DNA of 64,000 bases from Channallabes apus (Eukaryota; Chordata; Actinopteri; Siluriformes; Clariidae), in assembly GCA_030522415.1 (NCBI GenBank), contig CM060109.1:31083892-31147891 (forward strand), read 5' to 3'. The notes below the pieces were generated by a model. That model worked only from the letters and a program-made list of their open reading frames with translations. It searched no databases and was not told where the DNA came from. Of this stretch, positions 915 through 47,558 are shown piece by piece. The position numbers were made by a program, and so were the translations under genes. Within the stretch, counting starts at the first letter, position 1; every line of letters begins with the position of its first letter.

Positions 915-916
915 TA

Positions 917-1770: not shown

Positions 1771-1771
<1 letters not shown>

Positions 1772-1813
<42 letters not shown>
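1772..1813. repeat. (TA)n microsatellite
   Basis: About 20 TA units directly abut the Tc1 remnant that begins at 1814. Tc1 elements insert at TA, so the run is a plausible landing site, or it expanded from the target duplication. Confidence 0.95.
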
Positions 1814-1814
<1 letters not shown>

Positions 1815-2544: not shown

Positions 2545-2561
2545 TATGTGTGTATATATTA

Positions 2562-2872: not shown

Positions 2873-3785
2873 TTATTGTAGACAACCATACAAGGGTAAT
2901 TATTACTAAGCCTGCCCTGGGTACACTAATTTTCTTGTATGTTGCCCTCACAGATTCCTGCAGCTAAGCTTGGATGTACATTTACATTCCAATAAAGGTT
3001 ACGGATGACATGCCTCTGAAGTTTGACTTTTTGCACCATTAAAATACTTATAGGCAACTACTTATCATATCTTCTTCTCCATGAAACATGTTAATGCTCA
3101 GTAGTACACATATATGGTTCTTTAATGTATTTGCATTGTCCTAAAATGCATTCTTTTTCAATTGCCATATACAGTATCCCAAATCACTATGGCCGTTAAA
3201 AAATACAACAAAAAAAACAACACATTTTTATTTTTTTTATGCTGTGTTCGTGCAATATATAGGCCCGTGGCACTGCCTAAGCTTTTATCCTTAATGCTTT
3301 TTTCTTAATTATCCTTAATTTTTCCCCCTCGTGTTACTTTTACTTTTAAGTAGTTTTGAAACCAGTACTTTTACACTTTTATTTGAGTAAAAAGCTTGAG
3401 TTGATACTTCAACTTCTAAAGGAGTCTTTTTAAACCCTAGTATCTATACTTCTACTCAAGTAATGAATGTGAATACTTTTGACACCACTGTATGGGGCTG
3501 GTATAAACATGCTTCAGTGCAAAATGGCTTGACTGGAAATACATTTAACTAGTCAAGCTTAAAAGGAACTATTTAAAATGAAGATTTTTTTTGTTAAATA
3601 ATGATTATTGAGTCTGACGATTAAAAATACTTTTGATGTTCTTAAGCCTGTCATATAAATATATGAATATAGTTTTGAGCCTTGGAGATTGCTTTCACTT
3701 GATTCACTAAATGGGTACAGTAACTGCACGAATTAATAGGTACTGTATATAGGCATAGATGCACAAAGGGCAGAGCTATTGCTGA
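2873..3785. other. No gene seen; AT-rich with a TACTTTTA-type repeat
   Basis: No open frame of interest is present. Around 3330-3490 the motif acttttactttta and several related phrases recur, ending 'tgacaccactgta', which looks like an old DNA-transposon end. A GC-poor unique-looking stretch surrounds it. Confidence 0.5.
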
Positions 3786-21581: not shown

Positions 21582-22479
21582 TATAGTCATGCTACTACTT
21601 GTAACAGTGGATGTCGCAGAGTGCCGAAAAAATATGGGCATCCAAATAAGGTCTTGGGCCTTGTCCTGTTTCTGTGAATATTTTAATGCAGATGACGAGA
21701 TTTATGAGAAGCTTTTGCGATTTGATGTTGTATGTACACAGTTTGATGTAGATCTGCAAAGTTAATGGTAATAATATAAATTGAAGCTAAAAGAATCTAT
21801 CTTATTTTGTCTGCTTCTCAATTTATTCATTAAGCTAAAGTTTTAATATTCTGTAGCGTTTTTCGATGCTAGCAGGGATCTTGGAGGACGAGTGAGCTTA
21901 CTTGCTCCCCAATGCAAATGGCTGGGGAGTAGTTTATTAACTCAGCACAAGCACACATACACAGGTCAAGCACACACCCATACACACGCCCAACTTGGCC
22001 GAAGCCACTAACCTAAACATCCTTCTCTCTCATGGTAGACACAGAGGAAACCCCCGCAAGGCATGACGGTGGTCAGCCACCGCCCCGCCCACGCCACAAT
22101 TCAGTTTCACATGAATACCCATAAGTCTTAACAGTACTGTATTATAATACTCTTATAATAATTGTTAGAGTATTGTTATAATAATTTGTTTGCTCACAAT
22201 ACTTTTCACAGCACTTCATTTTTCTTAACCATAAAACGTTCCTAAATTAATATGGCAATATTTTTTTATTATATTAAAAAAAGATTTAACACTTTTTAGC
22301 AGAACTTCTGAGAACTATTTTTATAACATTTGTAGCATTTCAGTAGAAGTGCTTTAGATACATTATACATTTTATTTTATAATACATTTTGATTTGTTCC
22401 ATTATTTGAACAGTATCTATCCTTTACTATCTATCCTCACTAATTCAGTTTAGACAAGCATACTGTTTATCCAAATATA
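21582..22479. other. No gene; AT-rich with a GC-richer island and an imperfect hairpin
   Basis: About 21870-22100 is GC-richer (cttgctccccaatgcaaatg ... caccgccccgcccacgcc) and may be an unknown LTR or MITE. At 22138-22190 'ttataatactct' and 'agagtattgttataa' form an imperfect hairpin. No coding frame is supported. Confidence 0.4.
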
Positions 22480-24087
22480 CAGTGGTGTGAAAAACTATTT
22501 GCCCCCCTCCTGATTTCTTATTCTTTTGCATGTTTGTCACACAAAATGTTTCTGATCATCAAACACTTTTAACTATTAGTCAAAGATAACACAAGTAAAC
22601 ACAAAATGCAGTTTTTAAATGAGGGGTTTTATTATTTAGGGAGAAAAAAAATCCAAACCTACATGGCCCTGTGTGAAAAAGCAATTGCCCCCTGAACCTA
22701 ATAACTGGTTGGGCCACCCTTAGCAGCAATAACTGCAATCAAGTGTTTACGATAACTTGCAACGAGTCTTTTACAGTGCTCTGGAGGAATTTTGGCCCAC
22801 TCATCTTTGCAGAATTGTTGTAATTCAGCTTTATTTGAGGGTTTTCTAGCATGAACCGCCTTTTTAAGGTCATGCCACAACATCTCAATAGGATTCAGGT
22901 CAGGACTTTGACTAGGCCACTCCAAAGTCTTCATTTTGTTTTTCTTCAGCCATTCAGAGGTGTGTTTTGGGTCATTGTCCTGCTGCAGCACCCAAGATCG
23001 CTTCAGCTTGAGTTGACGAACAGATGGGCGGACATTCTCCTTCAGGATTTTTTGGTAGACAGTAGAATTCATGGTTCCATCTATCACAGCAAGCCTTCCA
23101 GGTCCTGAAGCAGCAAAACAACCCCAGACCATCACACTACCACCACCATATTTTACTGTTGGTATGATGTTCTTTTTCTGAAATGCTGCGTTACTTTTAC
23201 GCCAGATGTAATGGGACTCGCACCTTCCAAAAAGTTCAACTTTTGTCTCGTCGGTCCACAAGGTATTTTCCCAAAAGTCTTGGCAATCATTGAGATGCTT
23301 TTTAGCAAAATTGAGACGAGCCTTAATGTTCTTTTTGCTTAAAAGTAGTTTGCGCCTTGGAAATCTGCCATGCAGGCCGTTTTTGCCCAGTCTCTTTCTT
23401 ATGGTGGAGTCGTGAACACTGACCTTAATTGAGGCAAGTGAGGCCTGCAGTTCTTTAGATGTTGTCCTGGGGTCTTTTGTGGCCTCTCGGATGAGTTGTC
23501 TCTGTGCTCTTGGGGTAATTTTGGTCGGCCGGCCACTCCTCGGAAGGTTCACCACTGTTCTATGTTTTTGCCATTTGTGGATAATGGCTATCACTGTGGT
23601 TCACTGGAGTCCCAAAGTTTTAGAAATGGCTTTATAACCTTTACCAGACTGATAGATCTCAATTACTTTTGTTCTCATTTGTTCCTGAATTTCTTTGGAT
23701 CTTGGCATGATGTCTAGCTTTTGAGGTGCTTTTGGTCTACTTCTCTGTGTCAGGTAGCTCCTATTTAAGTCATTTCTTGATTGAAACAGGTGTAGCAGTA
23801 ATCAGGCCCTGGGGTGACTACAGAAATTGAACTGAGGTGTGATAAACCACAGTTAAGTTATTTTTTAACAAGGGGGGCAATCACTTTTTCACACAGGGCC
23901 ATGTAGATTTGGAGTTTTTTTTCTCCCTTAATAACGTAAACCTTCATTTAAAAACTGCATTTTATGTTCAATTATGTTATCTTTGACTAATAGTTAACAG
24001 TTTTTGATGAGCAGAAACATTTAAGTGTGACAAACATGTAAAAGAATAAGAAATCAGTAAGGGGGCAAATAGTTTTTCACACCACTG
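22480..24087 (-). mobile_element. Tc1-A: full-length Tc1-like transposon (1608 bp)
   Basis: The element starts cagtggtgtgaaaaactatt and ends with its complement, between TA dinucleotides at 22478-22479 and 24088-24089. The inverted repeats extend roughly 200 bp, as in IR/DR-type Tc1 elements. Its single gene is on the minus strand. It is a close relative of Tc1-B (38268-39887), which lies in the opposite orientation. Confidence 0.95.
22698..23708 (-). pseudogene. Tc1-A transposase, stop at codon 36 and 4-codon deletion
   Basis: From ATG at 23708 the frame shows the first helix-turn-helix (MRTKVIEIYQSGKGYKAISK), then TGA at codon 36 (23601-23603), and continues open to 22698. The linker is PRSGRPTKITPRA. 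The catalytic residues are WTDETKVELFG, QQDNDPKH and SPDLNPIEMLWHDLK. Tc1-B has KSTS between the second Asp and the Glu; Tc1-A lacks those four residues, so the spacing drops from 34 to 30 and the enzyme is probably inactive. The C-terminal end (GGPTSY then stop) is normal. Confidence 0.9.
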
Positions 24088-26460
24088 TATATTTTTTAAC
24101 TACATACCATAACTGTGTTAGTTATATATCTAACATGGCTAATCTAACTACAGTAACTAACTACTGTAGCTAACACTATCCATGATATTAGCAAATTTTA
24201 TTTCTTTTTATGCACACATACAGTACATACACTGACAATTTGCTAATTTTTAATTTTTTTTTGCCAGCTGCATTTTTATTTATTATTATTATTATTTTTT
24301 TTACTATATAACATCTGCAATACTGTATTAATTTATAGGTATAATTACATACATTTTCCCTATTATCCCCTCCCCTTATTGCTTTTTGTCTAACTTGCTG
24401 CTGCTGTAACACAATATTTTCCCTCACGCGATCAATAAAATCTGACTGTCTGTCTGTCTATCTGTCTATCTATCTTAATTAATGCACAAATAAAACCTCA
24501 CATTACCCTGGTTACACTGTACAGTTTCTTAATACTAACATAAGCTATCTCCGGCTAATTTAAGTTCTTTAGCATTACCTTACTAAAACTAGACTGCTGG
24601 CAAGTGAGTTAACATTAACTAGATGACATATTACCCAGCTAACAGGATAGCTAGCCGGCATTATTTTAATTTGCCAGTGGGAGTAGTTACTGAGTTGCTT
24701 TCATGAATCTTCAGCTTTAAATTAACATTAGCCATATTTTAGGAACTATGCAATGGGTTAAATACAACCCAATTTTAATAGTAGTAAACATTAGCTCCAA
24801 ATACACTTTAAAATATAACTTGGAACATTTTTTAATATCAGTTTACATAGACATTTTAATTAATCATGGTTGTTATTGTCAGATTTAACAGATTAATAAG
24901 ATTATTTTTTGTCACCTTGAAAGTCCCATGCAACCCCAGGCTTACAGTACATTTCTACAGTGGCACTAAGGTTAAGTAAATTAATTAGTAGTTGTTAGCT
25001 AATTGTTTGGCTGCAGTTATAGCTGCAAAGTTGTGTAGAACATGATTATGTGGAATATCAACTTCGAACAAACTCAACCTTTTTTCCCCATATTGCCACT
25101 ACCACTAGGCTTCACTGTAGAAAAAAATTCAGGTATTCATCAAATATGGCTCTTTATGCCAAGCAAAATGTTCCATCTTTGAAGACTCCAAGCAGAAAGT
25201 CACATCTGTAATGGCTTTATTCTAATCACTGTTCCCCCAAAAAGCCAGCTTTATAGAGTGTCATAAAAAGCTTGTTTCATTTTTGCTGTGATACAGTAGC
25301 TCACCTTATTGAGTATTACCACTGGCCACCTGGCTGCCTTTCCCCCTGGTTATCCATGTTTGGTAGAGAGTCTCCTTGTGTGATTTTGGTGATTAGGATG
25401 TGCCATACTTTTATATGCTGATTTTTTGTTTTATGGTGTTTGGGATTCTGGGTCTGGAGTATTTTGATGACCAACCTGATAACTATCCAGCACTCTGCTT
25501 GTTTTGTTTTGGCATTTTTTGATACTGTAGCTCATTGGTCTTCATAATGCTGCTTGTCTAGGTTGATCTATAAGAGTCTGTGGAAGAAAAATCAAGGGCA
25601 TGCATATTCACAGTATATTGAACTCATATACATTTTACCTGCATAGAGGCAGACTCCACTTAAATAATGATGTGTCTTCTTATGGTAATTGGTTGCAGCA
25701 GAACTTCAATATTAATAGGTTCTAGTTTAGTGATAATTAGAAATAGTAATTAAAAGCAAAATGTGACAAAGTTTTACTTACTTACTTACTTACTTACTTA
25801 ATTAATTAATTAATAGCAATGAATGAGATTAGCACCCACTGATAGCTAATTAGTATCAAGTCCAAAATTTGTGCCAGTTGATGAAATTTGTCATAACTTT
25901 GTTCTAAAAATATTTATTAGGCATGGTGTTTAAAGGCCTTTGTGAAGAACAACTGAATTATAAACATCAACAGTATAAGAGTTCTTGTTTCCAAAACTGA
26001 ATCCATGAGGTTAACACCTGGCTTTAAATAGAGCCAGGTGTTAAATGTTGCAGGGACACAAAAACACTTTCACAGTAGATAACCTATACAATCTTTAAAT
26101 TTTAATATGTGCTTTTAATTAAATCACATCAAATCAAGTATTTGGTTGCATACGGTGATTTGAATTGTGCATATTTTCATGTTCAGGATTCCAAGGACCT
26201 CAGGATATCAGTTTTTTTTTTTTTTTTTTTTTTTACTGTATCTGGTTGGTGAGATATGGGCAGTTTGTTTAAGAGGAGGGCATTGAAAAAAGTGAAATCT
26301 ACTTTTATAATATGTAAATAAGGATTTTATGATGTTGTAAGAATGATGGAACCCTTAGCTTCAATTGGCCAGGATTTCCCCTAAAAATAACTTTTTATAG
26401 CAAAAGAATACATATGTTTTTATCATAAATAGAGTAAACACCTTTATTAGTGTTCGAGTC
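24088..26460. other. No gene seen; AT-rich sequence with small repeats
   Basis: Between 24200 and 24475 an AT-rich stretch ends 'atcaataaaatctgactg' and a TCTG/TCTA microsatellite (24445-24473), the look of an old retroposon tail. A TTAC/TTAA run lies at 25776-25815 and a poly-T of 23 at 26211-26233. Nothing coding or RNA-like is supported. Confidence 0.6.
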
Positions 26461-26850: not shown

Positions 26851-27226
26851 ATGAATTACTCCTCCACCGCTGCTCAGTTCTCTGATGCGTTTAACCGGAG
26901 CTGTGATGATGACATCTCGGAGTACACTTCTGTTGCTGGCTTCAACACTGAGACACTAGCATCCTGGTTCCATTCCACCTGTAAGGCTGCCTTGGACTCT
27001 GTGGCTCCATTAAAAATCAGGCGCCCGAAAGTTAAATCCGAACCCTGGTTAAACGACGAGACTCGTGCTGTCAGACGTGAGTGTCGAAAAGTGGAACGCA
27101 AATGTAAAAAGGACAAATTACAAGTGTCTTTTATTTCGTTGAGAGATTGTTGGCGTCTTTATCAGAAAACTGTTAAAGCGGCAAAAACCAAACATTACTC
27201 TGACTTAATTTTAGCAAACTGTCATA
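26851..27226 (+). pseudogene. L2-B, linker between endonuclease and RT
   Basis: The frame contains AALDSVAPLKIRRPKVKSEP, PWLNDETRAVRRECRKVER and AAKTKHYSDLILANCH, typical of the L2/CR1 linker. The codons for Cys-His end at 27224-27226 and the frame would continue with Lys-Pro-His at 35725, showing exactly what was interrupted. Confidence 0.8.
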
Positions 27227-27252
27227 CAGTGGTTACAAAATCGGAGCGTCGT
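27227..27252 (+). repeat. Left terminal inverted repeat of the 8.5-kb unit
   Basis: Fifteen bases (CAGTGGTTACAAAAT) pair perfectly with 35710-35724, followed by about ten partly matching bases (GGA and GG/CG positions). The first seven bases equal those of the Tc1-A and Tc1-B ends (CAGTGGT). Confidence 0.85.
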
Positions 27253-27722
27253 ATGTAACGTCGCCGCCGCATTACGGGATGTGCATTTGCTGTGCATTTG
27301 CTGGCTTTTACCACTGAGTGGCGCTATATAACTACAGACTGACGCCTCATGCCTTAGTTCATTCTCTGCCTCAATAATACATGTAATAGCCGATAACATC
27401 AAGTGAAACACTGTAGTTGACCGAATTCATAATCACAGTACTATAATTACAGTACAAATGTAGAATTCAAATTAAATAAAATCTTATTAAGATCAAATTT
27501 AAGCACAATAAATATTAACACAGTGAGCCTTTAGATTTTATCACGTGTAATTAGAAAAGAAGTGTGTAGGGTTTTATTTAAATATAAATTTCTAAACCAA
27601 TAAGATCAAATAACACCAAGTTATTATTATAACAGGCGTACTTCGTCACTTATCAAAGACGTACACTTGCTTTCAAAGAAGTCGAGTGGCTTATTAACGT
27701 CTCTGGTGTGCCTTGGCTCTAA

Positions 27723-27796
27723 GTGGCCGCTTGGTGTAGCGGATAGAACACTCGGTTAGTGATCTACAAAGCGCCGGCTCGAATCCCGAGTGATGT
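27723..27796 (+). repeat. tRNA-like sequence in left arm
   Basis: It has an A-box-like ttggtgtagcggatagaac and a B-box-like ggctcgaatccc about 40 bases apart. The stems do not form a convincing cloverleaf and the D and anticodon regions are irregular, so a working tRNA gene is unlikely. Related copies are at 31246-31313 (spacer) and 35163-35236 (right arm, inverted). Confidence 0.55.
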
Positions 27797-28229
27797 TTTA
27801 AAATTGTTTTATTTTAAAACTAAATAAAATGTTTTAAGTGCGCTTAAGGTAGAGTCTTATAAAGGCTATGTAGACTTATATAGTTTTATTATATATTTTT
27901 TGCACATTAATCTGAGTCCTCATCTGTTAGATCTGTTTAGTTTTTTTTTTCCTGCCGGGACGAATGCGCGGTTCCATCCCTTTCCCGCCTATTCAGGGAG
28001 CCTACGGAGTGAGCGATTAACCATAGTCGAATCGATTGGTGTGCGTCCAACTCACGTTACTCGTGTGCTATTAATGCCGGCTGGTGATAATTAACGTTAA
28101 TATGATCTCGGGCTTGCTCACGATGCTCAACATCTATAAAAATAGCAAAGTATTGTGTATAGAGTGATAAAAAAAACTATCTAACGCATGTTAGAAAACA
28201 TAATTTCCTGCATTTTTTTTCTGCTTCAG

Positions 28230-28350
28230 GAGTCAGTCTGTTCTGAGACAGTGAGAGTAGAGGAAGGGGCAGGTTCAGGACCAGGGAGGGAGCCGGAGAC
28301 AGCAGAACAAAGAGATGATATTGCCAGCACCAGCACAGGGAGCACAGTTT
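28230..28350 (+). pseudogene. Exon-like acidic segment, possible hAT/ZMYM-like fragment (left arm)
   Basis: After a pyrimidine tract and 'ctgcttcag' (a good 3' splice site), the frame reads SETVRVEEGAGSGPGREPET then AEQRDDIASTSTGS. Acidic Ser/Thr-rich linkers like this occur near the N-terminus of hAT-derived zinc-finger proteins. The inverted copy is at about 34610-34731. The family link is inference from composition and the neighbouring SGAEKRK segment. Confidence 0.35.
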
Positions 28351-28560
28351 TTAGTTTAGATCTCATGTTTACATTTTATTGTATGTTGATGGCTTGACTG
28401 TAAACAACATAAACAATGCAATAAATTTATAAAAATATATATTTATTGTCCCCCCTGTATATGTATTTATTGTCCCCCCCTGCTGTTAAATGAAATTTGC
28501 GTTATTTTACGTTAATGTTACGTTATTACATTATTAACGTCGACAGAATAAAGTAAAGTT

Positions 28561-28665
28561 TTATTTCTGGAATTGATGCACGGGCTTCATCTTAGGCTTT
28601 TTTTTCTTTCGGTTCTTTCGTTTCTCAGCGCCGGACTGTTGATGTCTCTTTCCAGGACCAGGCAT
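28561..28665 (-). pseudogene. Short frame with SGAEKRK motif (left arm)
   Basis: A 34-residue frame from ATG at 28665 has MPGPGKRHQQSGAEKRKNRK followed by a Lys-rich run. SGAEKRK-type starts are familiar from hAT-like transposases and related zinc-finger proteins. It points towards the acidic exon-like segment at 28230-28350, which is on the other strand, so the two are not one gene in this order. The inverted copy is at 34318-34422. Confidence 0.35.
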
Positions 28666-29509
28666 ATCGTTCAATTATTACAATTCTTTTGGCCAAATAC
28701 TGTAGGCAGCCGTAACAGAGGTGAGGGCGCGCGCGTCATCACGTGTGCTTAGCCGACTCTGCGTTCACCGTAAACTTCAATATAGACGTTTATATTTTTG
28801 TTTATTTGTATATGTATGTTATTAATATTAATTTTTTAGAGATTGTGTGTGTGCGTGCACGGAGAGTTTGTGTTGATAAGTGTATGTGGATAAGTTGATA
28901 AGTGTATCAGAAAACATTAAAATGTTCATTTGAATTAAAATGACACACACACGTCTGTATATACAGTATATCAATTACATATATATCCATTTCATTAGTT
29001 CGTTCATTCTATTTGAAACTTCGGATGTTTTTTTTTTTTTTTTTTTTTGGTTTGGTTAGATTAGTTCTGAACTCGCTTCCGTGAAACTATCGCTAAAACA
29101 ATGTACTGAGCCCTCCTGAGGATATAAAGCTTTATTATTGTGTTTGGATAAATAATCAGATCTACCACAGCAGATAATAAACTATGGTGTGTCATAACCG
29201 AAGCAAACACCACGATTATACCTCGTTTCGTTTGACAGGAACGTGGTTCACTTGGCCGCTGTGTATTATAAACCTGTGGAATGTTTCACTGTTTATGTTC
29301 ACATAAGAGGAATAAAAGCGAGTGAAATGTGGAAATGATGAGGACTAAACCAATGATTTCGGTAACTCCACTGAGTGTAACATCTGCATAGTGACACTGA
29401 ACATCTTCACTTTTCCGTTTACCTCTGAAAAAAAAGCTGTATTTAGTTTGTTTATATTTAGAGTTTTTATAACAGTAAAAGAAGTATGCGCGCGCACGCA
29501 CACACATAG

Positions 29510-29541
<32 letters not shown>

Positions 29542-31245
29542 ACCTCCCTTGAGCCCTGCGTCTGTCGGATTTCAGCTGTCACGGGGTGGAAAGACTTTGA
29601 AGCAGTTTATATATGAATCTAAGCTTGAACTTATCAGCATTGTAAATATATAATACTTTTCAAATAAAATCGCTATTACTTTGACCCTGAAGTTTAGTTT
29701 AGCACACACAAAAAACAGAAAAGTAATTTCTGGTAAATCAACGGAATGTGTAGTATTTACAGTAATTCATTAAAAAATGAATATACATTGTACAGTACAC
29801 GGTAAACACGGGAAAGATTACAAAATGAAAAAACAAACAGTGTCTACTTTATAAACAGCTTAGTATGTGCGTCGAGATGCTGAAATCCCTTGCATGTTTT
29901 TGCTTCCAAGTGGAGAGATATTTGACCGATAGCCTAGAACAAAAGATCTATAGGTGTGATCACAACCCCCTCCGACCGACCGTGCCATCAATCACTGACC
30001 ACCTCAGAAGTTCCCTCCAATGTATGGCTGCAATACTTGTTTTGCAAGTATTTTTAACACCATTCAAAGGCTTACAAGTTCCATTCAACCTATAATGATG
30101 TCTCCACATGTTAATATATTCCTAAAATTTATATATTACAAGTTGATAAACTGATCTGCGGTAGCGGAAAAATCCGCTGAAAAAATGACAGGCTAAAGCG
30201 CACGCGCACTCACACACAGACATACACAGACACACCTCCCTTGAGCCCTCGGTAAACATCCAAGCACTGAGGCACGCAAATCCCCTGACCACAATAAGGT
30301 GGCAATCCCTCAGGGGGGAAGATGAAAAATACAAATTAAATAAATAAAACAAAATAAAATATCCTTAATCCAGATTTTATCAATCAACGACATAATATTG
30401 ATCTTAGCTGGATGGTCTAATTCTCAAAACCGTTTAACCTAAAGAAAAACTTAACACACTATAACTAGAATATTTACAAAACTGAAAGGTTGTCTTATGT
30501 ATAATAAAAAAACCTCATAACTCAAAAAGATCATATTATGTTTTTATATATTTTTTTAGATTTTTTTTAATAGTAACTGAACAGCTCTCTTCTCTCCAAT
30601 CCACTCCTAAACCACAGTCTCCTATTTCTCTGTGCGTGCTCTGGAGCCTGTGAATGAATACACGCAGCGGAGGTTTTGTAAACTGTAGAGATACAATAAT
30701 TTTACTGCTGGAAAATCAGCATTTTATCTAATTTGAAATATAAACCTAATATTATCTGTTACTTAATATATTTTCTTTTGATGATGACCATAACAGCCTA
30801 CTGCATTTCATTATTTATAATAACACAAAAACAATATTACAATATTTGATATTTTAATATAAACTCGGTATCATTATCCTCCTTGTGTATGTGTAAAATA
30901 CATTTGATTTGTTCTATTTTTTATTCTGATAGTGTGCTCAATTTGTTTCTAGTAATTTATATATTTAAATTCGGATGCCTTTTACTGTTACAAATTTAAC
31001 TCTTTGCAAAATAATAAAAATGTGTCTTGCTGTACAAGCCCTTGTGTTGTTGTTTGTGCTGCTGTTCTTTAATAATACCAATAATCAGATACAAACAGTC
31101 TGTCTAAACGAAAATTAAGCAATGCTTCTTAACTCATCATTATGTGGATATTTTTCATGTTCGTTGGATAAAGTATGTACTGTAATGATTTGGTCTACTC
31201 TGTACTGTATGTGTGTGAGAAAGAGGGGTGTCGCGGTCGTGAAAT

Positions 31246-31313
31246 AGGTTGGTGTAGTGGTTAGAGCGCTCGGTCAGGGATTTACAAAGCGGCGGTTCAA
31301 ATCCTGGATGATG
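31246..31313 (+). repeat. tRNA-like sequence in spacer
   Basis: The sequence ggttggtgtagtggttagag (A box) and ggcggttcaaatcc (B box) match pol III promoter elements better than the arm copies do. The following gttttaaaattttttt is shared with 27797-27815, so all copies derive from the same repeat, perhaps a SINE head. Confidence 0.55.
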
Positions 31314-31467
31314 CTGTTTTAAAATTTTTTTCTATTTTAATTTTACTCAGCAAACAAACAGCAAACAAAAAAAATTATTATTCAGATCACGATATGCAAC
31401 CGTAATGAGTCCCTTAACCGGCTTATACAGCTGGCATGTGACCAACGTATTTAACCGTGATGAGTCC

Positions 31468-31528
31468 ATAAAATCAGTAGCAGCTAATAATTACTAATTA
31501 CTTTAGTTAATGCTGCTACTGATTTTAT
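31468..31528. repeat. 17-bp perfect hairpin near the palindrome centre
   Basis: ataaaatcagtagcagc and gctgctactgattttat are exact complements with a 27-base loop. The midpoint (31498) is about 20 bases from the midpoint of the two arms (31478). Confidence 0.9.
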
Positions 31529-32363
31529 TCCAGCTTACCTGTTCAGGTTGATTGCGATTCTTTTTAAAATATTGTCTCAGTTTTATATGTTGTTCGTCTT
31601 AATGTTTGTCTTCTTTTCACTTGGCAACACTCAAATGCAAATTATTCACCGTGAATCAGCTGTTCTCACCTATCCATTCAGAGAAACTGAATGAGCTGAA
31701 ATGAGCCTTTGTTTCACGACCGCGACACCCCTCTTTCTCACGCACATACAGTACAGAGTAGACCAAATCATTACAGTACATACTTTATCCAACGAACATG
31801 AAAAATATCCACATAATGATGAGTTAAGAAGCATTGCTTAATTTTCGTTTAGACAGACTGTTTGTATCTGATTATTGGTATTATTAAAGAACAGCAGCAC
31901 AAACAACAACACAAGGGCTTGTACAGCAAAGAGTTAAATTTGTAACAGTAAAAGGCATCCGAATTTAAATATATAAATTACTAGAAACAAATTGAGCACA
32001 CTATCAGAATAAAAAATAGAACAAATCAAATGTATTTTACACATACACAAGGAGGATAATGATACCGAGTTTATATTAAAATATCAAATATTGTAATATT
32101 GTTTTTGTGTTATTATAAATAATGAAATGCAGTAGGCTGTTATGGTCATCATCAAAAGAAAATATATTAAGTAACAGATAATATTAGGTTTATATTTCAA
32201 ATTAGATAAAATGCTGATTTTCCAGCAGTAAAATTATTGTATCTCTACAGTTTACAAAACCTCCGCTGCGTGTATTCATTCACAGGCTCCAGAGCACGCA
32301 CAGAGAAATAGGAGACTGAGGTTTAGGAGTGGATTGGAGAGAAGAGAGCTGTTCAGTTACTAT

Positions 32364-32369
32364 AAAAAA

Positions 32370-32425
<56 letters not shown>
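32364..32425. repeat. Poly-A and (AT)n run present only in the right arm
   Basis: About 24 A followed by some 19 AT units occupy the position where the left arm has tatatttttttagatttttt. This is a microsatellite expansion after the arms were formed. Confidence 0.9.
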
Positions 32426-32429
<4 letters not shown>

Positions 32430-33437
32430 CATAATATGATCTTTTTGAGTTATGAGGTTTTTTTATTATACATAAGACAACCTTTCAGTTTTGTAAATAT
32501 TCTAGTTATAGTGTGTTAAGTTTTTCTTTAGGTTAAACGGTTTTGAGAATTAGACCATCCAGCTAAGATCAATATTATGTCGTTGATTGATAAAATCTGG
32601 ATTAAGGATATTTTATTTTGTTTTATTTATTTAATTTGTATTTTTCATCTTCCCCCCTGAGGGATTGCCACCTTATTGTGGTCAGGGGATTTGCGTGCCT
32701 CAGTGCTTGGATGTTTACCGAGGGCTCAAGGGAGGTGTGTCTGTGTATGTGTGTGTGTCTGTGTGTGAGTGCGCGTGCGCTTTAGCCTGTCATTTTTTCA
32801 GCGGATTTTTCCGCTGCCGCAGATCAGTTTATCAACTTGTAATATATAAATTTTAGGAATATATTAACATGTGGAGACATCATTATATGTTGAATGGAAC
32901 TTGTAAGCCTTTGAATGGTGTTAAAAATACTTGCAAAACAAGTATTGCAGCCATACATTGGAGGGAACTTCTGAGGTGGTCAGTGATTGATGGCACGGTC
33001 GGTCGGAGGGGGTTGTGATCACACCTATAGATCTTTTGTTCTAGGCTATCGGTCAAATATCTCTCCACTTGGAAGCAAAAACATGCAAGGGATTTCAGCA
33101 TCTCGACGCACATACTAAGCTGTTTATAAAGTAGACACTGTTTGTTTTTTCATTTTGTAATCTTTCCCGTGTTTACCGTGTACTGTACAATGTATATTCA
33201 TTTTTTAATGAATTACTGTAAATACTACACATTCCGTTGATTTTACCAGAAATTACTTTTCTGTTTTTTGTGTGTGCTAAACTAAACTTCAGGGTCAAAG
33301 TAATAGCGATTTTATTTGAAAAGTATTATATATTTACAATGCTGATAAGTTCAAGCTTAGATTCATATATAAACTGCTTCAAAGTCTTTCCACCCCGTGA
33401 CAGCTGAAATCCGACAGCCGCAGGGCTCAAGGGAGGT

Positions 33438-33476
<39 letters not shown>

Positions 33477-34317
33477 TATGTGTGTGCGTGCGCGCGCATA
33501 CTTCTTCTACTGTTATAAAAACTCTAAATATAAACAAACTAAATACAGCTTTTTTTTCAGAGGTAAACGGAAAAGTGAAGATGTTCAGTGTCACTATGCA
33601 GATGTTACACTCAGTGGAGTTACCGAAATCATTGGTTTAGTCCTCATCATTTCCACATTTCACTCGCTTTTATTCCTCTTATGTGAACATAAACAGTGAA
33701 ACATTCCACAGGTTTATAATACACAGCGGCCAAGTGAACCACGTTCCTGTCAAACGAAACGAGGTATAATCGTGGTGTTTGCTTCGGTTATGACACACCA
33801 TAGTTTATTATCTGCTGTGGTAGATCTGATTATTTATCCAAACACAATAATAAAGCTTTATATCCTCAGGAGGGCTCAGTACATTGTTTTAGCGATAGTT
33901 TCACGGAAGCGAGTTCAGAACTAATCTAACCAAACCAAAAAAAAAAAAAAAAAACATCCGAAGCTTCAAATAGAATGAACGAACTAATGAAATGGATATA
34001 TATGTAATTGATATACTGTATATACAGACGTGTGTGTGTCATTTTAATTCAAATGAACATTTTAATGTTTTCTGATACACTTATCAACTTATCCACATAC
34101 ACTTATCAACACAAACTCTCCGTGCACGCACACACACAATCTCTAAAAAATTAATATTAATAACTTACATATACAAATAAACAAAAATATAAACGTCTAT
34201 TTTGAAGTTTACGGTGAACGCAGAGTCGGCTAAGCACACGTGATGACGCGCGCGCCCTCACCTCTGTTACGGCTGCCTACAGTATTTGGCCAAAAGAATT
34301 GTAATAATTGAACGATA

Positions 34318-34422
34318 TGCCTGGTCCTGGAAAGAGACATCAACAGTCCGGCGCTGAGAAACGAAAGAACCGAAAGAAAAAAAAGCCTAAGATGAAGCCC
34401 GTGCATCAATTCCAGAAATAAA
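34318..34422 (+). pseudogene. Short frame with SGAEKRK motif (right arm)
   Basis: Inverted copy of 28561-28665 with the same 34-residue reading. Its preservation in both arms reflects arm identity and is not by itself evidence of selection. Confidence 0.35.
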
Positions 34423-34609
34423 ACTTTACTTTATTCTGTCGACGTTAATAATGTAATAACGTAACATTAACGTAAAATAACGCAAATTTCATTTAACAGC
34501 AGGGGGGACAATAAATATATATTTTTATAAATTTATTGCATTGTTTATGTTGTTTACAGTCAAGCCATCAACATACAATAAAATGTAAACATGAGATCTA
34601 AACTAAAAA

Positions 34610-34731
34610 CTGTGCTCCCTGTGCTGGTGCTGGCAATATCATCTCTTTGTTCTGCTGTCTCCGGCTCCCTCCCTGGTTCTGAATCTGCCTCTACCTCTAC
34701 TCTCACTGTCTCAGAACAGACTGACTCCTGA
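34610..34731 (-). pseudogene. Exon-like acidic segment (right arm)
   Basis: Inverted copy of 28230-28350. It has several amino-acid differences from the left copy (VEVEADSEPGREPE against VEEGAGSGPGREPE), among the densest differences between the arms, which suggests no constraint on this frame. Confidence 0.35.
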
Positions 34732-35162
34732 AGCAGAAAAAAAATGCAGGAAATTATGTTTTCTAACATGCGTTAGATAGTTTTTTTTATCACTCTATAC
34801 ACAATACTTTGCTATTTTTATAGATGTTGAGCATCGTGAGCAAGCCCGAGATCATATTAACGTTAATTATCACCAGCCGGCATTAATAGCACACGAGTAA
34901 CGTGAGTTGGACGCACACCAATCGATTCGACTATGGTTAATCGCTCACTCCGTAGGCTCCCTGAATAGGCGGGAAAGGGATGGAACCGCGCATTCGTCCC
35001 GGCAGGAAAAAAAAAACTAAACAGATCTAACAGATGAGGACTCAGATTAATGTGCAAAAAATATATAATAAAACTATATAAGTCTACATAGCCTTTATAA
35101 GACTCTACCTTAAGCGCACTTAAAACATTTTATTTAGTTTTAAAATAAAACAATTTTAAAAC

Positions 35163-35236
35163 ATCACTCGGGATTCGAGCCGGCGCTTTGTAGATCACTG
35201 ACCGAGTGTTCTATCCGCTACACCAAGCGGCCACTT
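35163..35236 (-). repeat. tRNA-like sequence in right arm
   Basis: Inverted copy of 27723-27796, one T/C change in the 'cggt(t/c)agtgatc' stretch. The same caveat applies: boxes are present, a cloverleaf is not convincing. Confidence 0.55.
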
Positions 35237-35726
35237 AGAGCCAAGGCACACCAGAGACGTTAATAAGCCACTCGACTTCTTTGAAAGCAAGTGTACGTCT
35301 TTGATAAGTGACGAAGTAAGCCTGTTATAATAATAACTTGGTGTTATTTGATCTTATTGGTTTAGAAATTTATATTTAAATAAATAGTAAACTTGGCCGA
35401 TTTTGTTGTAATTTTGTTTGATGAGTGGGGATTGAAAATTCTCTTGAAAAATATGGTCATTTATTTCAGTTAATAAATCTACTATAATTTTTTTTTACTC
35501 ATTATTGTACAGTAGACATTAATAGCTCTGGTTCAGATTTTTCATGTTTGTTGTGGAAATTACCATCACTGTTGTATTTACTGCGATGAATGAAAATGTC
35601 ACTTTGCGCCACCTGGCGGCCATTTTACGAATGACTTTGAAATGCAACTGATTTATTTTGGCAGCTGTTGCCTTTAAACGGCGGTATACGCGGCGAGATC
35701 GCCATTCCAATTTTGTAACCACTGTA

Positions 35727-37724: not shown

Positions 37725-38267
37725 ATTAAAGTGCATACAACAATGATTAAACTTTTCAGGTCTGTTGGAGCATCAGGAAGGTAAAGTATTTATCAACCAA
37801 TATTTACATTTTACCTACTGCAAACTAGTGGACATAGTGCAAAACTAACTTGTGTGACTTATTACTTGACTTGATATAACAAGCCATGAATAGAAAACAC
37901 ACAGAAAGGGTATTATTAGGCAGCAAAGTGAAAGGATCAGTGTTAATATTGTTTACAGGGGAAGATATATCAAAGACTAAAAAAAGATGCAATTCAATAG
38001 AAATATTGGTAAATAACTGAGAAAGGATTAACAACACTGCGAAATTTCATTATTTTTATTTATTAAATTTTGCACATTTATAAAAATAATTATGTGTTGT
38101 ACAGTATATTCACATTAATGAATACAGTAGCTCTGTTGTACGGTAACAGTTATCCAGAAGTAGTGCATACATTTATTGTTTCAGCTCTTGGAGACATATT
38201 GAGCATCTTCAGTTATCATTACTCACTGAATGTTTTTTAGTACCTACTATGCACTACTGATACTATA
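37725..38267. other. No gene; AT-rich spacer between L2-B and Tc1-B
   Basis: Short frames only, low complexity, no recognisable repeat. Confidence 0.6.
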
Positions 38268-39887
38268 CAGTGGTGTGAAAAACTATTTGCCCCCTTCCTG
38301 ATTTCTTATTCTTTTGCATGTTTGTCACACTTAAATGTTTCTACTCATCAAAAACCGTTAACTATTAGTCAAAGATAACATAATTGAACACAAAATGCAG
38401 TTTTTAAATTAAGGTTTACGTTATTAAGGGAGAAAAAAACCTCCAAATCTACATGGCCCAGTGTGAAAAAGTGATTGCCCCCCTTGTTAAAAAATAACTT
38501 AACGGTGGTTTATCACACCTGAGTTCAATTTCTGTAGTCACCCCCAGGCCTGATTACTGCCACACCTGTTTCAATCAAGAAATCACTTAAATAGGAGCTA
38601 CCTGACACAGAGAAGTAGACCAAAAGCACCTCAAAAGCTAGACATCATGCCAAGATCCAAAGAAATTCAGGAACAAATGAGAACAAAAGTAATTGAGATC
38701 TATCAGTCTGGTAAAGGTTATAAAGCCATTTCTAAAGCTTTGGGACTCCAGTGAACCACAGTCAGAGCCATTATCCACAAATGGCAAAAACATGGAACAG
38801 TGGTGAACCTTCCCAGAAGTGGCCGGCAAACCAAAATTACCCCAAGAGCGGAGAGACAACTCATCCGAGAGGCCACAAAAGACCCCAGGACAACATCTAA
38901 AGAACTGCAGGCCTCACTTGCCTCAATTAAGGTCAGTGTTCACGACTCCACCATAAGAAAGAGACTGGGCAAAAACGGCCTGCATGGCAGATTTCCAAGG
39001 CGTAAACCACTTTTAAGCAAAAAGAACATTAAGGCTTGTCCAAATTTTGCTAAAAAACATCTCAATGATTGCCAAGACTTTTGGGAAAATACCTTGTGGA
39101 CCGACAAGACAAAAGTTGAACTTTTTGGAAGGTGCGTGTCCCGTTACATCTGGCGTAAAAGTAACACAGCATTTCAGAAAAAGAACATCATACCAACAGT
39201 AAAATATGGTGGTGGTAGTGTGATGGTCTGGGGTTGTTTTGCTGCTTCAGGACCTGGAAGGCTTGCTGTGATAGATGGAACCATGAATTCTACTGTCTAC
39301 CAAAAAATCCTGAAGGATAATGTCCGGCCATCTGTTCGTCAACTCAAGCTGAAGCGATCTTGGGTGCTGCAGCAGGACAATGACCCAAAACACACCAGCA
39401 AATCCACCTCTGAATGGCTGAAGAAAAACAAAATGAAGACTTTGGAGTGGCCTAGTCAAAGTCCTGACCTGAATCCTATTGAGATGTTGTGGCATGACCT
39501 TAAAAAGGCGGTTCATGCTAGAAAACCCTCAAATAAAGCTGAATTACAACAATTCTGCAAAGATGAGTGGGCCAAAATTCCTCCAGAGCGCTGTAAAAGA
39601 CTCGTTGCAAGTTATTGCAAACGCTTGATTGCAGTTATTGCTGCTAAGGGTGGCCCAAACCAGTTATTAGGTTCAGGGGGCAATTACTTTTTCACACAGG
39701 GCCATGTAGGTTTGGATTTTTTTTCTCCCTAAATAATAAAACCCCTCATTTAAAAACTGCATTTTGTGTTTACTTGTGTTATCTTTGACTAATAGTTAAA
39801 TGTGTTTGATGATCAGAAACATTTTGTGTGACAAACATGCAAAAGAATAAGAAATCAGGAGGGGGCAAATAGTTTTTCACACCACTG
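38268..39887 (+). mobile_element. Tc1-B: full-length Tc1-like transposon (1620 bp)
   Basis: It has the same ends as Tc1-A between TA at 38266-38267 and 39888-39889, and the same layout with the gene on the plus strand. It is 12 bp longer than Tc1-A, accounted for by the four codons missing from Tc1-A. The LTR element begins 33 bases beyond its right end. Confidence 0.95.
38647..39732 (+). pseudogene. Tc1-B transposase with stop at codon 36 and altered C-terminus
   Basis: ATG at 38647 begins the first DNA-binding helix-turn-helix; TGA at 38752-38754 falls at codon 36, the same place as in Tc1-A. Downstream is open for over 300 codons: SGRQTKITPRAERQ, WTDKTKVELFGRC (Lys replaces the Glu after the catalytic Asp of Tc1-A), QQDNDPKHTSKSTSEW and SPDLNPIEMLWHDLK, spacing DD34E. 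One extra A near 39657 shifts the last codons, so the normal GGPTSY end becomes a longer tail. A shorter protein from Met at 38800 would lack the first DNA-binding domain. Confidence 0.9.
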
Positions 39888-39920
39888 TATGTATAAAGTC
39901 ATATCTCTTTGTTACGAACC

Positions 39921-40264: not shown

Positions 40265-42267
40265 GTACTCCCCCCCAAAGAAATGCTCCTCCGGAGCATC
40301 GCCAGAGGCCCCGGGCACCCACCCCACAGTACTACCTTCGGCCTCCTGACCAGGAGGCTGGGTGACGGTCCCGGAGACGTGCTCGACGGAGGCGTTGGAG
40401 CGCTCACTGCGCTCGACGGAGGCGTTGGAGCGCTCACTGCGCTCGACGGAGGCGTTGGAGCGCTCACTGCGCTCGACGGAGGCGTTGGAGCGCTCACTGC
40501 GCTCGACGGAGGCGTTGGAGCGCTCACTGCGCTCGACGGAGGCGTTGGAGCGCTCACTGCGCTCGACGGAGGCGTTGGAGCGCTCACTGCGCTCGACGGA
40601 GGCGTTGGAGCGCTCACTGCGCTCGACGGAGGCGTTGGAGCGCTCACTGCGCTCGACGGAGGCGTTGGAGCGCTCACTGCGCTCGACGGAGCCGTTGGAG
40701 CGCTCACTGCGCTCGACAGAGGCGTTGGAGCGCTCACTGCGCTCGACGACGGCCCTGGAGCGTGCAGTGCGCTCGACGACGGCCCTGGAGCGTGCAGTGC
40801 GCTCGACGACGGCTCTGGAGCGTGCACGACGCTCGATGACGGCTCTGGAGCGTGCACGACGCTCGACGACGGCTCTGGAGCGTGCACGACGCTCGACGAC
40901 GGCTCTGGAGCGTGCACGACGCTCGACGACGGCTCTGGAGCGTGCAGTGCGCTCGACAGCGGCGTTGGAGCGTGCAGTGCGCTCGACAGCGGCGTTGGAG
41001 CGTGCAGTGCGCTCGACAGCGGCGTTGGAGCGTGCAGTGCGCTCGACCGCGGCGTTGGAGCGTGCAGTGCGCTCGACCGCGGCGTTGGAGCGTGCAGTGC
41101 GCTCGACAGCGGCGTTGGAGCGTGCAGTGCGCTCGACAGCGGCGTTGGAGCGTGCAGTGCGCTCGACGACGGCTCTGGAGCATGCACGACGCTCGACGAC
41201 GGCTCTGGAGCGTGCACGACGCTCGACGACGGCTCTGGAGCGTGCACGACGCTCGACGACGGCGTTGGAGCGTGCAGTGCACTCGACAGCGGCGTTGGAG
41301 CGTGCAGTGTGCTCGACGGCTCAACGTCGTCCTCAAAGCCGGGAGGCGGCAGAAGAACGCATGTGTCGGACAGCGGCTGCTGACACGCTGGCTCGCTGTC
41401 CTCGAAGCCGGGAGGCGGCGGCAGAACGGGAGCGTCGGTCAGCTGCTGCTGACACGCTGGCTCGCTGTCCTCAAAGCCGGGAGGCGGCGGCAGAACGAGT
41501 GTGTCGGTCAGCGGCTGCTGACATACTAGCTCGCTGTCCTCGAAGCCGGCAGGCGGCGGCAGGATGAGTGTGTCGGTCAGCGGCTGCTGACATGCTAGCT
41601 CGCTGTCCATGAAGCCGGGAGGCGGCGGCAGAATGGGTGCGTCGGTCAGCGGCTGCTGACACGCTAACTCTCCATCCTCAAAGCCGGGAGGCGGCGGAAG
41701 AACGGGTGCATGGCACAGCGGCTGCTGACACGCTAGCGCACTGTCCTCCGTGGCAGGTTCAGGCAGTGGCCGGGGGAGGAGTGCATCGTCCAGATCCGGG
41801 AGGGGGATCGCTTCCGGGACTACAGGCTGGTTCTCCCGAACCTGGACGAACTGCAGTTGGAGCTGCAGCACCTGCTCGCGCAGGTCACGAATGCACTCCT
41901 CGTTGCGCTCTGCCCACTGCCTGTAGAACTCCTCTGTCTCTCCCTCGGCTGCTACACCTCTCGGCGGTGTGCGCCGGATGGCGAGCCCGCAGCCTTCCCA
42001 GCTCTGCTGCGCCATCCTCTCCCTCTGTGTCGCTTTCTCCTCCTGCCTCTCCGCCTCCTCGGCGTACCTGCAGTTCTCCCAGCTTTGCCAGAACTCTGTC
42101 TCGCTGTGCTCCTCGCTGTCTTCCCGCAAGCCCTCCTGCTCCATCAGCAAGCTGTACTCCCAGCTGTGGTACATGTCCTCCTCGCTGTCCTCTAGCCAGT
42201 CCGCCAGCTCGTTGGAGATGGTAATCACGCCCCCCCAAAATTCGTCCCGGGGGGGAACCTCCGCCAT
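40246..42267 (-). CDS. Repeat-rich Gag-like protein of the single-ORF LTR element (673 aa)
   Basis: I choose ATG at 42267 (MAEVPPRDEFWGG), 24 bases inside the LTR boundary, because the equivalent site exists in Gypsy-2; the frame is also open upstream to 42387 inside the LTR. Residues 1-110 are acidic with many Trp; about 112-146 predict a coiled coil (RNEECIRDLREQVLQLQLQF). Then come six 23-residue repeats (core LACQQPLTDA.ILPPPPGF) and 31 ten-residue repeats (SSAVSAPTPP and SSALHAPTPL types). There is no zinc knuckle and no enzyme motif. The last codons and TAG are in the 3' LTR. A structural Gag role is inferred from position; the function is unknown. Confidence 0.7.
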   Translation of the reverse strand: MAEVPPRDEFWGGVITISNELADWLEDSEEDMYHSWEYSLLMEQEGLREDSEEHSETEFWQSWENCRYAEEAERQEEKATQRERMAQQSWEGCGLAIRRTPPRGVAAEGETEEFYRQWAERNEECIRDLREQVLQLQLQFVQVRENQPVVPEAIPLPDLDDALLPRPLPEPATEDSALACQQPLCHAPVLPPPPGFEDGELACQQPLTDAPILPPPPGFMDSELACQQPLTDTLILPPPAGFEDSELVCQQPLTDTLVLPPPPGFEDSEPACQQQLTDAPVLPPPPGFEDSEPACQQPLSDTCVLLPPPGFEDDVEPSSTLHAPTPLSSALHAPTPSSSVVHAPEPSSSVVHAPEPSSSVVHAPEPSSSALHAPTPLSSALHAPTPLSSALHAPTPRSSALHAPTPRSSALHAPTPLSSALHAPTPLSSALHAPTPLSSALHAPEPSSSVVHAPEPSSSVVHAPEPSSSVVHAPEPSSSVVHAPEPSSSALHAPGPSSSALHAPGPSSSAVSAPTPLSSAVSAPTAPSSAVSAPTPPSSAVSAPTPPSSAVSAPTPPSSAVSAPTPPSSAVSAPTPPSSAVSAPTPPSSAVSAPTPPSSAVSAPTPPSSAVSAPTPPSSAVSAPTPPSSTSPGPSPSLLVRRPKVVLWGGCPGPLAMLRRSISLGGSTVTVNP
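40381..41310. repeat. Coding minisatellite, 31 units of 30 bp
   Basis: The unit gctcgacggaggcgttggag plus cgctcactgc repeats without any indel, so the frame never shifts. The first 12 units are nearly identical; later units fall into cgtgcagtgc and cgtgcacgac subtypes arranged in blocks, which shows block duplications. Open frames on the opposite strand here are mirror artefacts. Confidence 0.95.
41331..41744. repeat. Coding minisatellite, 6 units of 69 bp
   Basis: Units start at 41331, 41400, 41469, 41538, 41607 and 41676 with c(c/a)t(c/g)aagccgggaggcgg, each 69 bp or 23 codons. Units differ by a few substitutions, and the period is again an exact multiple of three. Confidence 0.9.
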
Positions 42268-46345: not shown

Positions 46346-47145
46346 AGAGAGTCTATAGGAGACGGGGTTTATTTGCGCTGATATGGGAAATGGACCGATG
46401 AACCTGGGGGAGAGTTTCTTGCAGGGGAGGTTGAGGTGAAGGTCCCGTGTCGAGAGCCACACCCGATCGCCTACCTGGAGCGGAGGACTTTCCCGTCGTC
46501 GCCTATCGGCATACTTTTTAAAGCGCTGCACTGCGCGTGAAATTTTTGTGTGTGCGTCTTCCCACACCTTCTCCGCTTTACTAAACCACTCGTCCACCAC
46601 AGGTACTTCGGTGGGAGTGGCGTCCCATGGACACAGCGGAGGTTGATAGCCTAATATGCACTGAAACGGCGTTAGGCCGGTAGAGGAGTGGCGTAGCGAA
46701 TTTTGTGCATATTCCGCCCAGAGTAGGCAGTCCGCCCATTCATGTTGTCTGCTGCTACAATATGCTCGAAGATATCTGCCGAGTTCTTGAACAGTCCGCT
46801 CTGCCTGCCCATTAGACTCGGGGTGATAGCCCGACGTTAGGCTAACAGTGGTCCCCAATTTCTGAAAGAATGCTTTCCAGACCCTGGCGATAAATTGGGG
46901 ACCACGATCTGATACAATATCTTCGGGAATGCCGTAGCAATGAAACACTGAAGTGAATAGGGTTTCTGCCACCTGGAGGGCTGACGGAAGGGAACGAAAC
47001 GGGATAAATCTACATCCCTTGGAGAACCTGTCTATTACCACGAGCACCGTGGTGTACCCGTTCGAGACCGGCAGGTCCGTGACAAAATCCACTGCAATAT
47101 GGGACCACGGTCTGTTCGGCACCGGGAGGGGCGTTAGTTTACCAA
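46346..47145 (-). pseudogene. Gypsy-2 integrase core
   Basis: [20 protein letters not shown] (first Asp), [19 protein letters not shown] (second Asp) and [17 protein letters not shown] (Glu) make a complete DDE core. [20 protein letters not shown] and [13 protein letters not shown] follow. The HHCC zinc finger and everything upstream are missing; the frame opens instead in the minisatellite, so any protein would carry repeat-encoded residues at its start. Confidence 0.85.
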
Positions 47146-47558
47146 CTGGAGCCTCCCCTGAGGCGCGCTGGCGGAACTGGAGCCTCCCCTGAGGCCCGCT
47201 GGCGGAACTGGAGCCTCCCCTGAGGCCCGCTGGCGGAACTGGAGCCTCCCCTGAGGCCCGCTGGCGGAACTGGAGCCTCCCCTGAAGCCCGCTGGCGGAA
47301 CTGGAGCCTCCCCTGAGGCCCGCTGGAAAACTGGAGCCTCCACTGAGGCCCGCTGGAAAACTGGAGCCTCCACTGAGGCCCGCTGGAAAACTGGAGCCTC
47401 CACTGAGGCCCGCTGGAAAACTGGAGCCTCCACTGAGGCCCGCTGGAAAACTGGAGCCTCCACTGAGGCCCGCTGGAAAACTGGAGCCTCCACTGAGGCC
47501 CGCTGGAAAACTGGAGCCTCCACTGAGGCCCACTGGAAAACTGGAGCCTCCCCTGGTT
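47146..47558. repeat. Minisatellite, 30- and 31-bp units
   Basis: Units of cctcccctgaggcccgctgg plus cggaactggag (31 bp, 47150-47330) switch to cctccactgaggcccgctgg plus aaaactggag (30 bp, 47331-47550). The 31-bp block rotates through the three reading frames with a period of three units, while the 30-bp block stays in one frame. All three minus-strand frames remain open through it. Confidence 0.9.

What the first reader, a model, noticed from the sequence alone, without database searches (positions are those of the whole stretch)
27227..35724. Giant palindrome inside a TA-flanked transposon-like unit
Two arms of about 3.67 kb in inverted orientation, separated by 467 bp, sit between unique flanks that end in 15-bp terminal inverted repeats, and removal of the unit plus one TA restores the L2-B coding frame exactly. 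Seen directly: ends, TA, arms, restored frame. Inference: either the whole 8.5 kb moved as a fold-back element, or a shorter Tc1/mariner-type unit later gained an inverted duplication. I know of no described fish element with this arrangement. Such long near-identical arms are expected to be unstable, so arm similarity suggests a recent origin or gene conversion.
Basis: partly seen in the sequence, partly recalled or inferred. Interest (0 to 1): 0.88.

Follow-up and report, generated by a model that had tools for sequence, protein, structure and literature searches.

The report
Mobile giant palindrome in a fish
An 8.5 kb jumping gene in a fish genome, made almost entirely of two mirror-image 3.7 kb halves, has hopped to several chromosomes as one unit, and its halves appear to recombine with each other, so very long DNA palindromes can spread in a vertebrate.

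Summary
Observation confirmed: TA, 15-bp terminal inverted repeats, flanks A and B, two inverted 3.67-kb arms, 467-bp spacer. The window's own genome was searchable. The element belongs to a non-autonomous family (923 A ends, 753 B ends), median length 5.5 kb in the part listed. The window copy is one of nine places genome-wide with the same palindrome junction and 2-bp filler. In seven of nine both ends were read; all seven abut TA, in flanks that differ by eye, so the palindrome moved as a unit. It most likely arose once, when an ordinary copy's right half was replaced by an inverted copy of its left half. The spacer lies one way in six copies and the other way in two. End-side markers follow A and B while one spacer-side marker follows the spacer, and inner arm parts group by element: signs of arm-arm crossover and gene conversion, unless the assembly misleads. 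Repeat extension from internal sequence is known from Galileo in flies, so this is a new variant. No transposase was found; Tc1/mariner is inferred. No reads were available.

The parts
27225..27226 (.). TA target site, left copy
   Evidence: Sequence
27227..27241 (+). Left 15-bp terminal inverted repeat CAGTGGTTACAAAAT
   Evidence: 923 genome places match TA plus this end plus 5 further bases at <=1 mismatch, control 0
27227..27572 (+). Unique flank A (346 bp)
   Evidence: The 40 best of 1606 first-look candidates were scored: 40 of 40 full length at 99-100% identity
27573..31244 (+). Left arm (arm positions 1-3672)
   Evidence: collinear with the left part of ordinary copies
31244..31247 (.). 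Palindrome-specific junction: arm position 3672 (31244), 2-bp TA filler (31245-31246), then spacer homology from spacer position 3 (31247)
   Evidence: Read against L020 and L023; 9 places genome-wide
31245..31711 (+). Spacer (467 bp with filler); in this copy inverted relative to ordinary members and to 6 of the 8 palindromic copies whose orientation is known
31712..35384 (-). Right arm, inverted copy of the left arm
35385..35724 (+). Unique flank B (340 bp)
   Evidence: At the right end of ordinary copies; 753 B ends genome-wide at <=1 mismatch, control 0
35710..35724 (-). Right 15-bp terminal inverted repeat
35725..35726 (.). TA target site, right copy
27573..27817 (+). Subterminal repeat (arm 1-245) that ordinary copies also carry inverted beside B at about 80%; probable homology by which the right end copied the left (inference)

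Best explanation
It is one copy of a fold-back subfamily of a non-autonomous, TA-targeting DNA transposon family. SHOWN by sequence: ordinary members run A, arm 1-3672, reversed spacer, a short right part with an 80% inverted copy of arm 1-245, B. In the palindromic form what lies right of the spacer is replaced by an inverted copy of arm 3672-1, joined with a 2-bp TA filler. That form occurs at nine places with the same junction and has moved as a unit. In the assembly, arm markers and spacer orientation are exchanged between copies. INFERRED: (1) origin by break or gap repair in which the B-side end, through its 245-bp inverted repeat, invaded the left arm, copied 3.67 kb and was end-joined; (2) the unit is mobilised in trans because its A and B ends are intact, by an unidentified transposase, most likely Tc1/mariner-type; (3) the arms recombine with each other: crossovers flip the spacer and gene conversion keeps the inner arm parts alike.
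For: Junction at 9 places with <=2 mismatches, 8 exact, control 0. A and B ends beside TA, in flanks that differ by eye, in 7 of the 9: window, C21, C4, C24, C11, C14, C16; C25 read at the left end only, C23 not read. Arm 3672 joined to the reversed spacer in 16 of 25 fetched ordinary loci. Breakpoint against L020 and L023. Six palindrome arms form one clade (98 distal, 90 proximal) with 7 derived sites absent from 17 ordinary copies. Spacer orientation: 6 copies as in ordinary members, 2 (window, C14) flipped, 1 (C23) not determined. C14, C16 and C21 share a 207-bp deletion in the A-side arm, yet C14 has the other spacer orientation. Sites 82 and 102 follow the B end in C21 and C14, while site 3642 follows the spacer side in window, C14 and C21. 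Derived states in both arms of one element only: 1416 and 3649 (window), 2438 (C21), 3264 (C14); 2978 in both arms of both C14 and C21. Proximal arm parts pair by element (92, 86, 44), distal parts pair the B arms of two elements (93).
Against: No reads were available: a mis-oriented spacer between near-identical arms, or polishing that copies bases between arms, could imitate flipping and conversion (neither would create the palindrome). The spacer-side marker is a single site. Whole-arm differences do not separate within (0.43-0.52%) from between elements (0.38-0.75%). 43 of 54 variable sites set one arm apart from the other five, so homogenisation is at best partial. Support for pairing the two C21 arms is only 44. 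Only 3 of 9 palindromic copies were read in full. No transposase was found in the element.
Confidence: 0.85

Rival explanations
1. The palindrome is an assembly artefact (a read or contig folded back on itself).
For: Long inverted repeats are a classic assembly problem (general knowledge); no reads were available to check.
Against: The same junction at 9 places on nine contigs with control 0, 7 of 9 with both ends beside TA in flanks that differ by eye, and arms that differ by substitutions and indels.
Confidence: 0.03
2. The palindrome is real and mobile, but the two spacer orientations and the within-element likeness of inner arms are assembly or polishing effects, not recombination.
For: An assembler can flip a 467-bp spacer between near-identical 3.67-kb arms, and polishing can copy bases between arms (general knowledge). 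The spacer-side marker is one site.
Against: Arms keep lone departures from the family majority (8, 8, 7, 1, 5 and 7 sites for WA, WB, 21A, 21B, 14A, 14B), which wholesale polishing would erase; distal arm parts are not homogenised; contigs are tens of megabases long, which suggests long reads.
Confidence: 0.2
3. Each palindrome formed independently at its own site by a recurrent event, and the palindrome itself never moved.
For: The family makes inverted duplications repeatedly: 646-bp arms beside B in 5 of 25 fetched loci and a third, internal one.
Against: Same breakpoints and TA filler at 9 places, 8 exact and 1 with one mismatch; 7 derived sites shared by all six arms read; one deletion shared by C14, C16 and C21.
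Confidence: 0.05
4. The element is mobilised by a transposase outside Tc1/mariner (for example a TA-targeting Mutator-like group).
For: TA target use is not exclusive to Tc1/mariner (recalled), 5.5 kb is large for it (recalled), and no transposase was found.
Against: Ends read TACAGTGGT, the first 9 bases also of two elements in the window that I judge Tc1-like from recalled protein motifs.
Confidence: 0.35

Closest known systems
Galileo (P superfamily, Drosophila), TIR extension (PMC3573991, passages seen; PMC4168063, passages seen)
   Same: Long inverted repeats that grow by recruiting internal sequence; the authors propose repair of one TIR from the other with a longer copied tract, giving TIR1-F1-F1-TIR2.
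   Different: Galileo TIR length is given as about 300 bp to 1.2 kb. Here the arms are 3.67 kb, lie inside unequal unique flanks A and B, the target is TA, and copies differ in spacer orientation with marker exchange.
Fold-back elements such as Tetris (Drosophila virilis; seen only in the listings)
   Same: Transposons with long inverted repeats.
   Different: This family is not fold-back as a whole: 9 palindrome junctions against 717 arm/reversed-spacer junctions at <=2 mismatches; the 717 include one such junction in each palindromic copy that keeps its centre.
Tc1/mariner superfamily, including the C. elegans fold-back elements Tc4 and Tc6 (recalled, from no call)
   Same: TA target, ends beginning CAGT, fold-back non-autonomous derivatives.
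   Different: No transposase identified; longer element and arms; beyond TACAGTGGT the ends differ from those of the Tc1-like elements in the window.
Palindromes of mammalian Y chromosomes and plastid inverted repeats (recalled; a plastid example in the listing)
   Same: Arm-to-arm gene conversion and inversion of the part between the arms.
   Different: Those stay in place; this one is a mobile element present at several sites.

Membership tests
Fold-back transposon | Long inverted repeats making up most of the element | tested here: met
   Arms cover 7345 of 8498 bp
Fold-back transposon | The folded form itself moves as a unit | tested here: met
   7 of 9 junction copies were read at both ends; all 7 have A, B and TA in flanks that differ by eye. 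At C21 the TA lies in TATATA on both sides, so the duplication length cannot be read there.
Tc1/mariner | TA target duplication | tested here: met
   25 of 25 left ends preceded by TA (for 6 of the 25, TA was part of the selection). Copy L030 sits in the A flank of another copy and splits it at TA.
Tc1/mariner | Terminal inverted repeats beginning CAGT (recalled as typical) | tested here: met
   CAGTGGTTACAAAAT at both ends
Tc1/mariner | Transposase of the Tc1 type in an autonomous member | tested here: inconclusive
   9 small ORFs (4 of the window element, 5 of L020): no Pfam family reaches its cut-off; one weak match to PF13677 at E 0.052. No autonomous partner was found.
Galileo / P superfamily | 7-8 bp target duplication (recalled) | tested here: not met
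   At C24, C11 and the window only TA is shared across the element; one search shows six end pairs, another the window
piggyBac / Kolobok | TTAA target (recalled) | tested here: not met
   Bases outside TA vary across 25 left flanks and six end pairs

The most novel reading that the evidence does not exclude
A vertebrate transposon can carry a self-maintaining giant palindrome. Arm-to-arm recombination inside each copy keeps the inner arms alike and flips the spacer back and forth, so the fold-back form stays intact and mobile in spite of its expected instability, much like a Y-chromosome palindrome that jumps.
Probability: 0.55. Interest if true: 0.7.

Novelty: new variant of a known kind. 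Interest (0 to 1): 0.6.

Why it matters
Inverted repeats of several kilobases are usually thought to be unstable, and the origin of fold-back transposons has mostly been argued from end products. Here one genome holds the ordinary form (hundreds of copies), at least two inverted-arm forms beside B (646 bp and 3.67 kb), the exact breakpoint, and nine places with the 3.67-kb junction. That makes the order of events, and with reads the rates of arm-arm conversion and spacer flipping, measurable in a vertebrate.

Tried and rejected
Assembly fold: rejected because the junction recurs at 9 places. Two different parent copies for the two arms: suggested by two indels at which the arms differ, then set aside, because C21 has the inserted state of both indels in both arms, so the window's right arm most likely lost them. 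tRNA-like stretches near both ends and in the spacer: ARAGORN found no tRNA and Rfam no tRNA match up to E 5, so nothing is built on them. Coding capacity: no Pfam family above cut-off in 9 ORFs. The 8.8-kb copy L009 holds an inserted repeat with repeated ends and repetitive ORFs, in which I saw no transposase by eye; it was not run against Pfam. L025 looked like a 646-bp-arm copy with a flipped interior, but an internal rearrangement is equally possible, so it is not counted. I guessed that outward-facing junction pairs were elements with B at both ends: each of the 14 pairs listed on C1-C3 has one exact B end on one side and none on the other, and two slices from the expected other end read as interior arm sequence, so the guess was dropped. 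Literature: the end sequence was not found as text (0 papers); searches listed no matching element (titles and starts of abstracts seen); the abstract of PMC1978519 was seen and not used.
Full report
OBSERVATION. At 27227-35724 there is a TA-flanked unit with 15-bp terminal inverted repeats, unique flanks A (27227-27572) and B (35385-35724), and two inverted arms (27573-31244, 31712-35384) around a 467-bp spacer. The arms differ at 20 of 3621 aligned bases in one alignment and 19 of 3621 in two later ones, plus indels. Taking out the unit and one TA gives one open frame across the site.

THE FAMILY. Flank A matched 40 of 40 scored places at full length and 99-100% identity; these were the best of 1606 first-look candidates. 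Whole-genome pattern counts at up to 1 mismatch are 923 A ends and 753 B ends, reversed-pattern controls 0. The listings show only the first 100 places. Of the 84 exact A ends they show on contigs C1-C3, 47 have an exact B end facing them within 20 kb; the median distance is 5529 bp. All 25 left ends are preceded by TA (for 6 of them TA was part of the selection). Copy L030 is inserted in the A flank of another copy and splits it at TA, with TA on both sides, which shows the target duplication against a known uninterrupted sequence.

ORDINARY STRUCTURE. Of the 25 loci, 16 show arm position 3672 joined to the reversed spacer; 2 (L010, L025) have the spacer in a rearranged setting; 7 show no such junction. 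At the right end, 12 of 25 have the arm 245-1 repeat (258-1 in L032) at about 80% beside B; 5 (L013, L022, L026, L029, L030) have a near-identical inverted arm from position 646 at 95-98%; 1 (L010) has arm 82-1 at 96%; 7 have no readable right end of these kinds. In 4 of the 5 the 646-bp arm begins exactly at the boundary with B; L026 lacks arm 1-45 and B 1-99. So the family has extended its inverted repeat beside B more than once.

THE PALINDROMIC FORM. Read from the B side, the window copy follows the ordinary left part (arm, reversed spacer) to L020 position 4784 and then, after a 2-bp TA filler (31245-31246), turns into the inverted arm from position 3672. This junction occurs at 9 places in the whole genome at up to 2 mismatches, 8 of them exact, control 0. 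An alignment search had found the same 8 places at full length and C23 in part (40 of 2059 candidates scored). The whole-element search placed the ends (24 of 9347 candidates scored). Both ends were read in 7 of 9 and abut TA in all 7: window, C21 (within TATATA on both sides), C4, C24, C11, C14 and C16. C25 was read at its left end only, and its match stops at query position 1737 on the right. C23 was not read. A further copy on C11 (39139257-39144948) has A, arm 1-1266, arm 3659-1 and B but not the centre, with TA at both ends. The flanks differ between sites by eye. The palindrome therefore moved as a unit.

ONE ORIGIN. Six arms from three copies (window, C21, C14) share 7 derived sites absent from 17 ordinary copies. 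In trees of 13 of the 23 aligned sequences (6 palindrome arms and 7 of 17 ordinary copies) they form one clade, with support 98 for the distal and 90 for the proximal part.

SPACER INVERSION. Seen from the A end, the spacer runs as in ordinary copies in six (C4, C24, C11, C16, C21, C25) and the other way in two (window, C14); C23 is undetermined. C14, C16 and C21 share a 207-bp deletion in the arm beside A (between arm 967 and 1175), yet C14 has the other spacer orientation from C16 and C21. If the shared deletion marks common descent, at least two changes of orientation are needed. Markers agree: derived sites 82 and 102 go with the B end in C21 and C14, while at site 3642, 30 bp from the spacer, the derived T sits in the arm beside spacer position 1 in all three copies, whichever end that is. 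This last marker is a single site. Crossover between the arms, between positions 1175 and 3642, explains this. A mis-oriented spacer in the assembly would imitate it, and I had no reads.

ARM HOMOGENISATION. Within-element arm differences are 0.52% (window), 0.43% (C21) and 0.49% (C14); between elements they run from 0.38% to 0.75%, so whole-arm figures alone do not separate the two. Site patterns say more. Four sites are derived in both arms of one element and absent from the other two elements and from all ordinary copies with a base there (14 to 16 of 17): 1416 and 3649 (window), 2438 (C21), 3264 (C14). A fifth, 2978, is derived in both arms of both C14 and C21. Two more sites with an element pattern (1726, 2153) were set aside because ordinary copies vary there. 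By my own arithmetic, parallel mutation would give about 0.006 such sites per element. In the earlier four-arm count (window and C21), 6 sites split the two elements and 1 split the arms crosswise, with 0 splitting A arms from B arms. Trees agree in part: for arm 1180-3672 the arms pair by element (window 92, C14 86, C21 only 44); for arm 1-960 the B arms of C21 and C14 pair instead (93). Against a simple picture: 43 of 54 variable sites set one arm apart from the other five; site 158 is derived in three of the four C14 and C21 arms; at sites 692 and 695 the window's left arm alone keeps the family state. I read this as gene conversion, partial and mainly in the spacer-side two thirds of the arms.

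MECHANISM. Shown: the ordinary and palindromic structures, the breakpoint with its 2-bp filler, movement of the unit; a single origin is strongly indicated. Inferred: repair of a break in the right half, in which the B-side end used its subterminal repeat to copy the left arm, followed by end joining. A like proposal, with product TIR1-F1-F1-TIR2, was made for Galileo in Drosophila mojavensis (PMC3573991, passages), whose TIRs are given as 300 bp to 1.2 kb. Mobilisation in trans by a Tc1/mariner-type transposase is inferred from TA and from ends starting TACAGTGGT, as in two elements of the window that I judge Tc1-like from recalled protein motifs (not run against Pfam). No transposase was found in the element.

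NOVELTY. Fold-back elements and repeat extension are known, so this is a new variant of a known kind. What seems new, within the searches made (listings only), is a vertebrate case with 3.67-kb arms inside unequal ends, nine junction places, and signs of spacer inversion and arm conversion between copies.

Noticed in passing
L050 (C1:52262560-52263500), L010, and places listed: A third inverted duplication, inside the element (arm 3672-3327 facing arm 3205-3672). Of the 94 junction places listed on C1-C3 (717 in all), 28 form 14 outward-facing pairs, 7 of them 806-830 bp apart, so this form may be amplified too.
   Followed up: partly
window 22473-24094 and 38260-39894: Two elements about 96.6% alike in opposite orientation on either side of the palindrome, with ends TACAGTGGTGTGAAAA; judged Tc1-like from recalled motifs in their ORFs.
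   Followed up: partly
window about 27726-27795, 31249-31315, 35162-35232: Stretches that look, by eye, like tRNA A and B boxes, near both ends and in the spacer; not recognised as tRNA by ARAGORN or Rfam.
   Followed up: partly
window 40381-41746 and 47144-47555: Tandem arrays with units of about 30 and 31 bp (from self-match offsets) that overlap long open frames.
   Followed up: no
L009, 4202-8752: An inserted repeat whose two ends repeat each other, with long repetitive open frames, inside one ordinary copy; LTR-type by eye.
   Followed up: no
window 1309-1362: UnaL2 LINE 3' element (RF00436), the only Rfam match above the gathering score in the window.
   Followed up: no
G000:C16:36030661-36038966: One palindromic copy sits in sequence whose flanks resemble, by eye, a retroelement gag gene with a zinc knuckle.
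   Followed up: no
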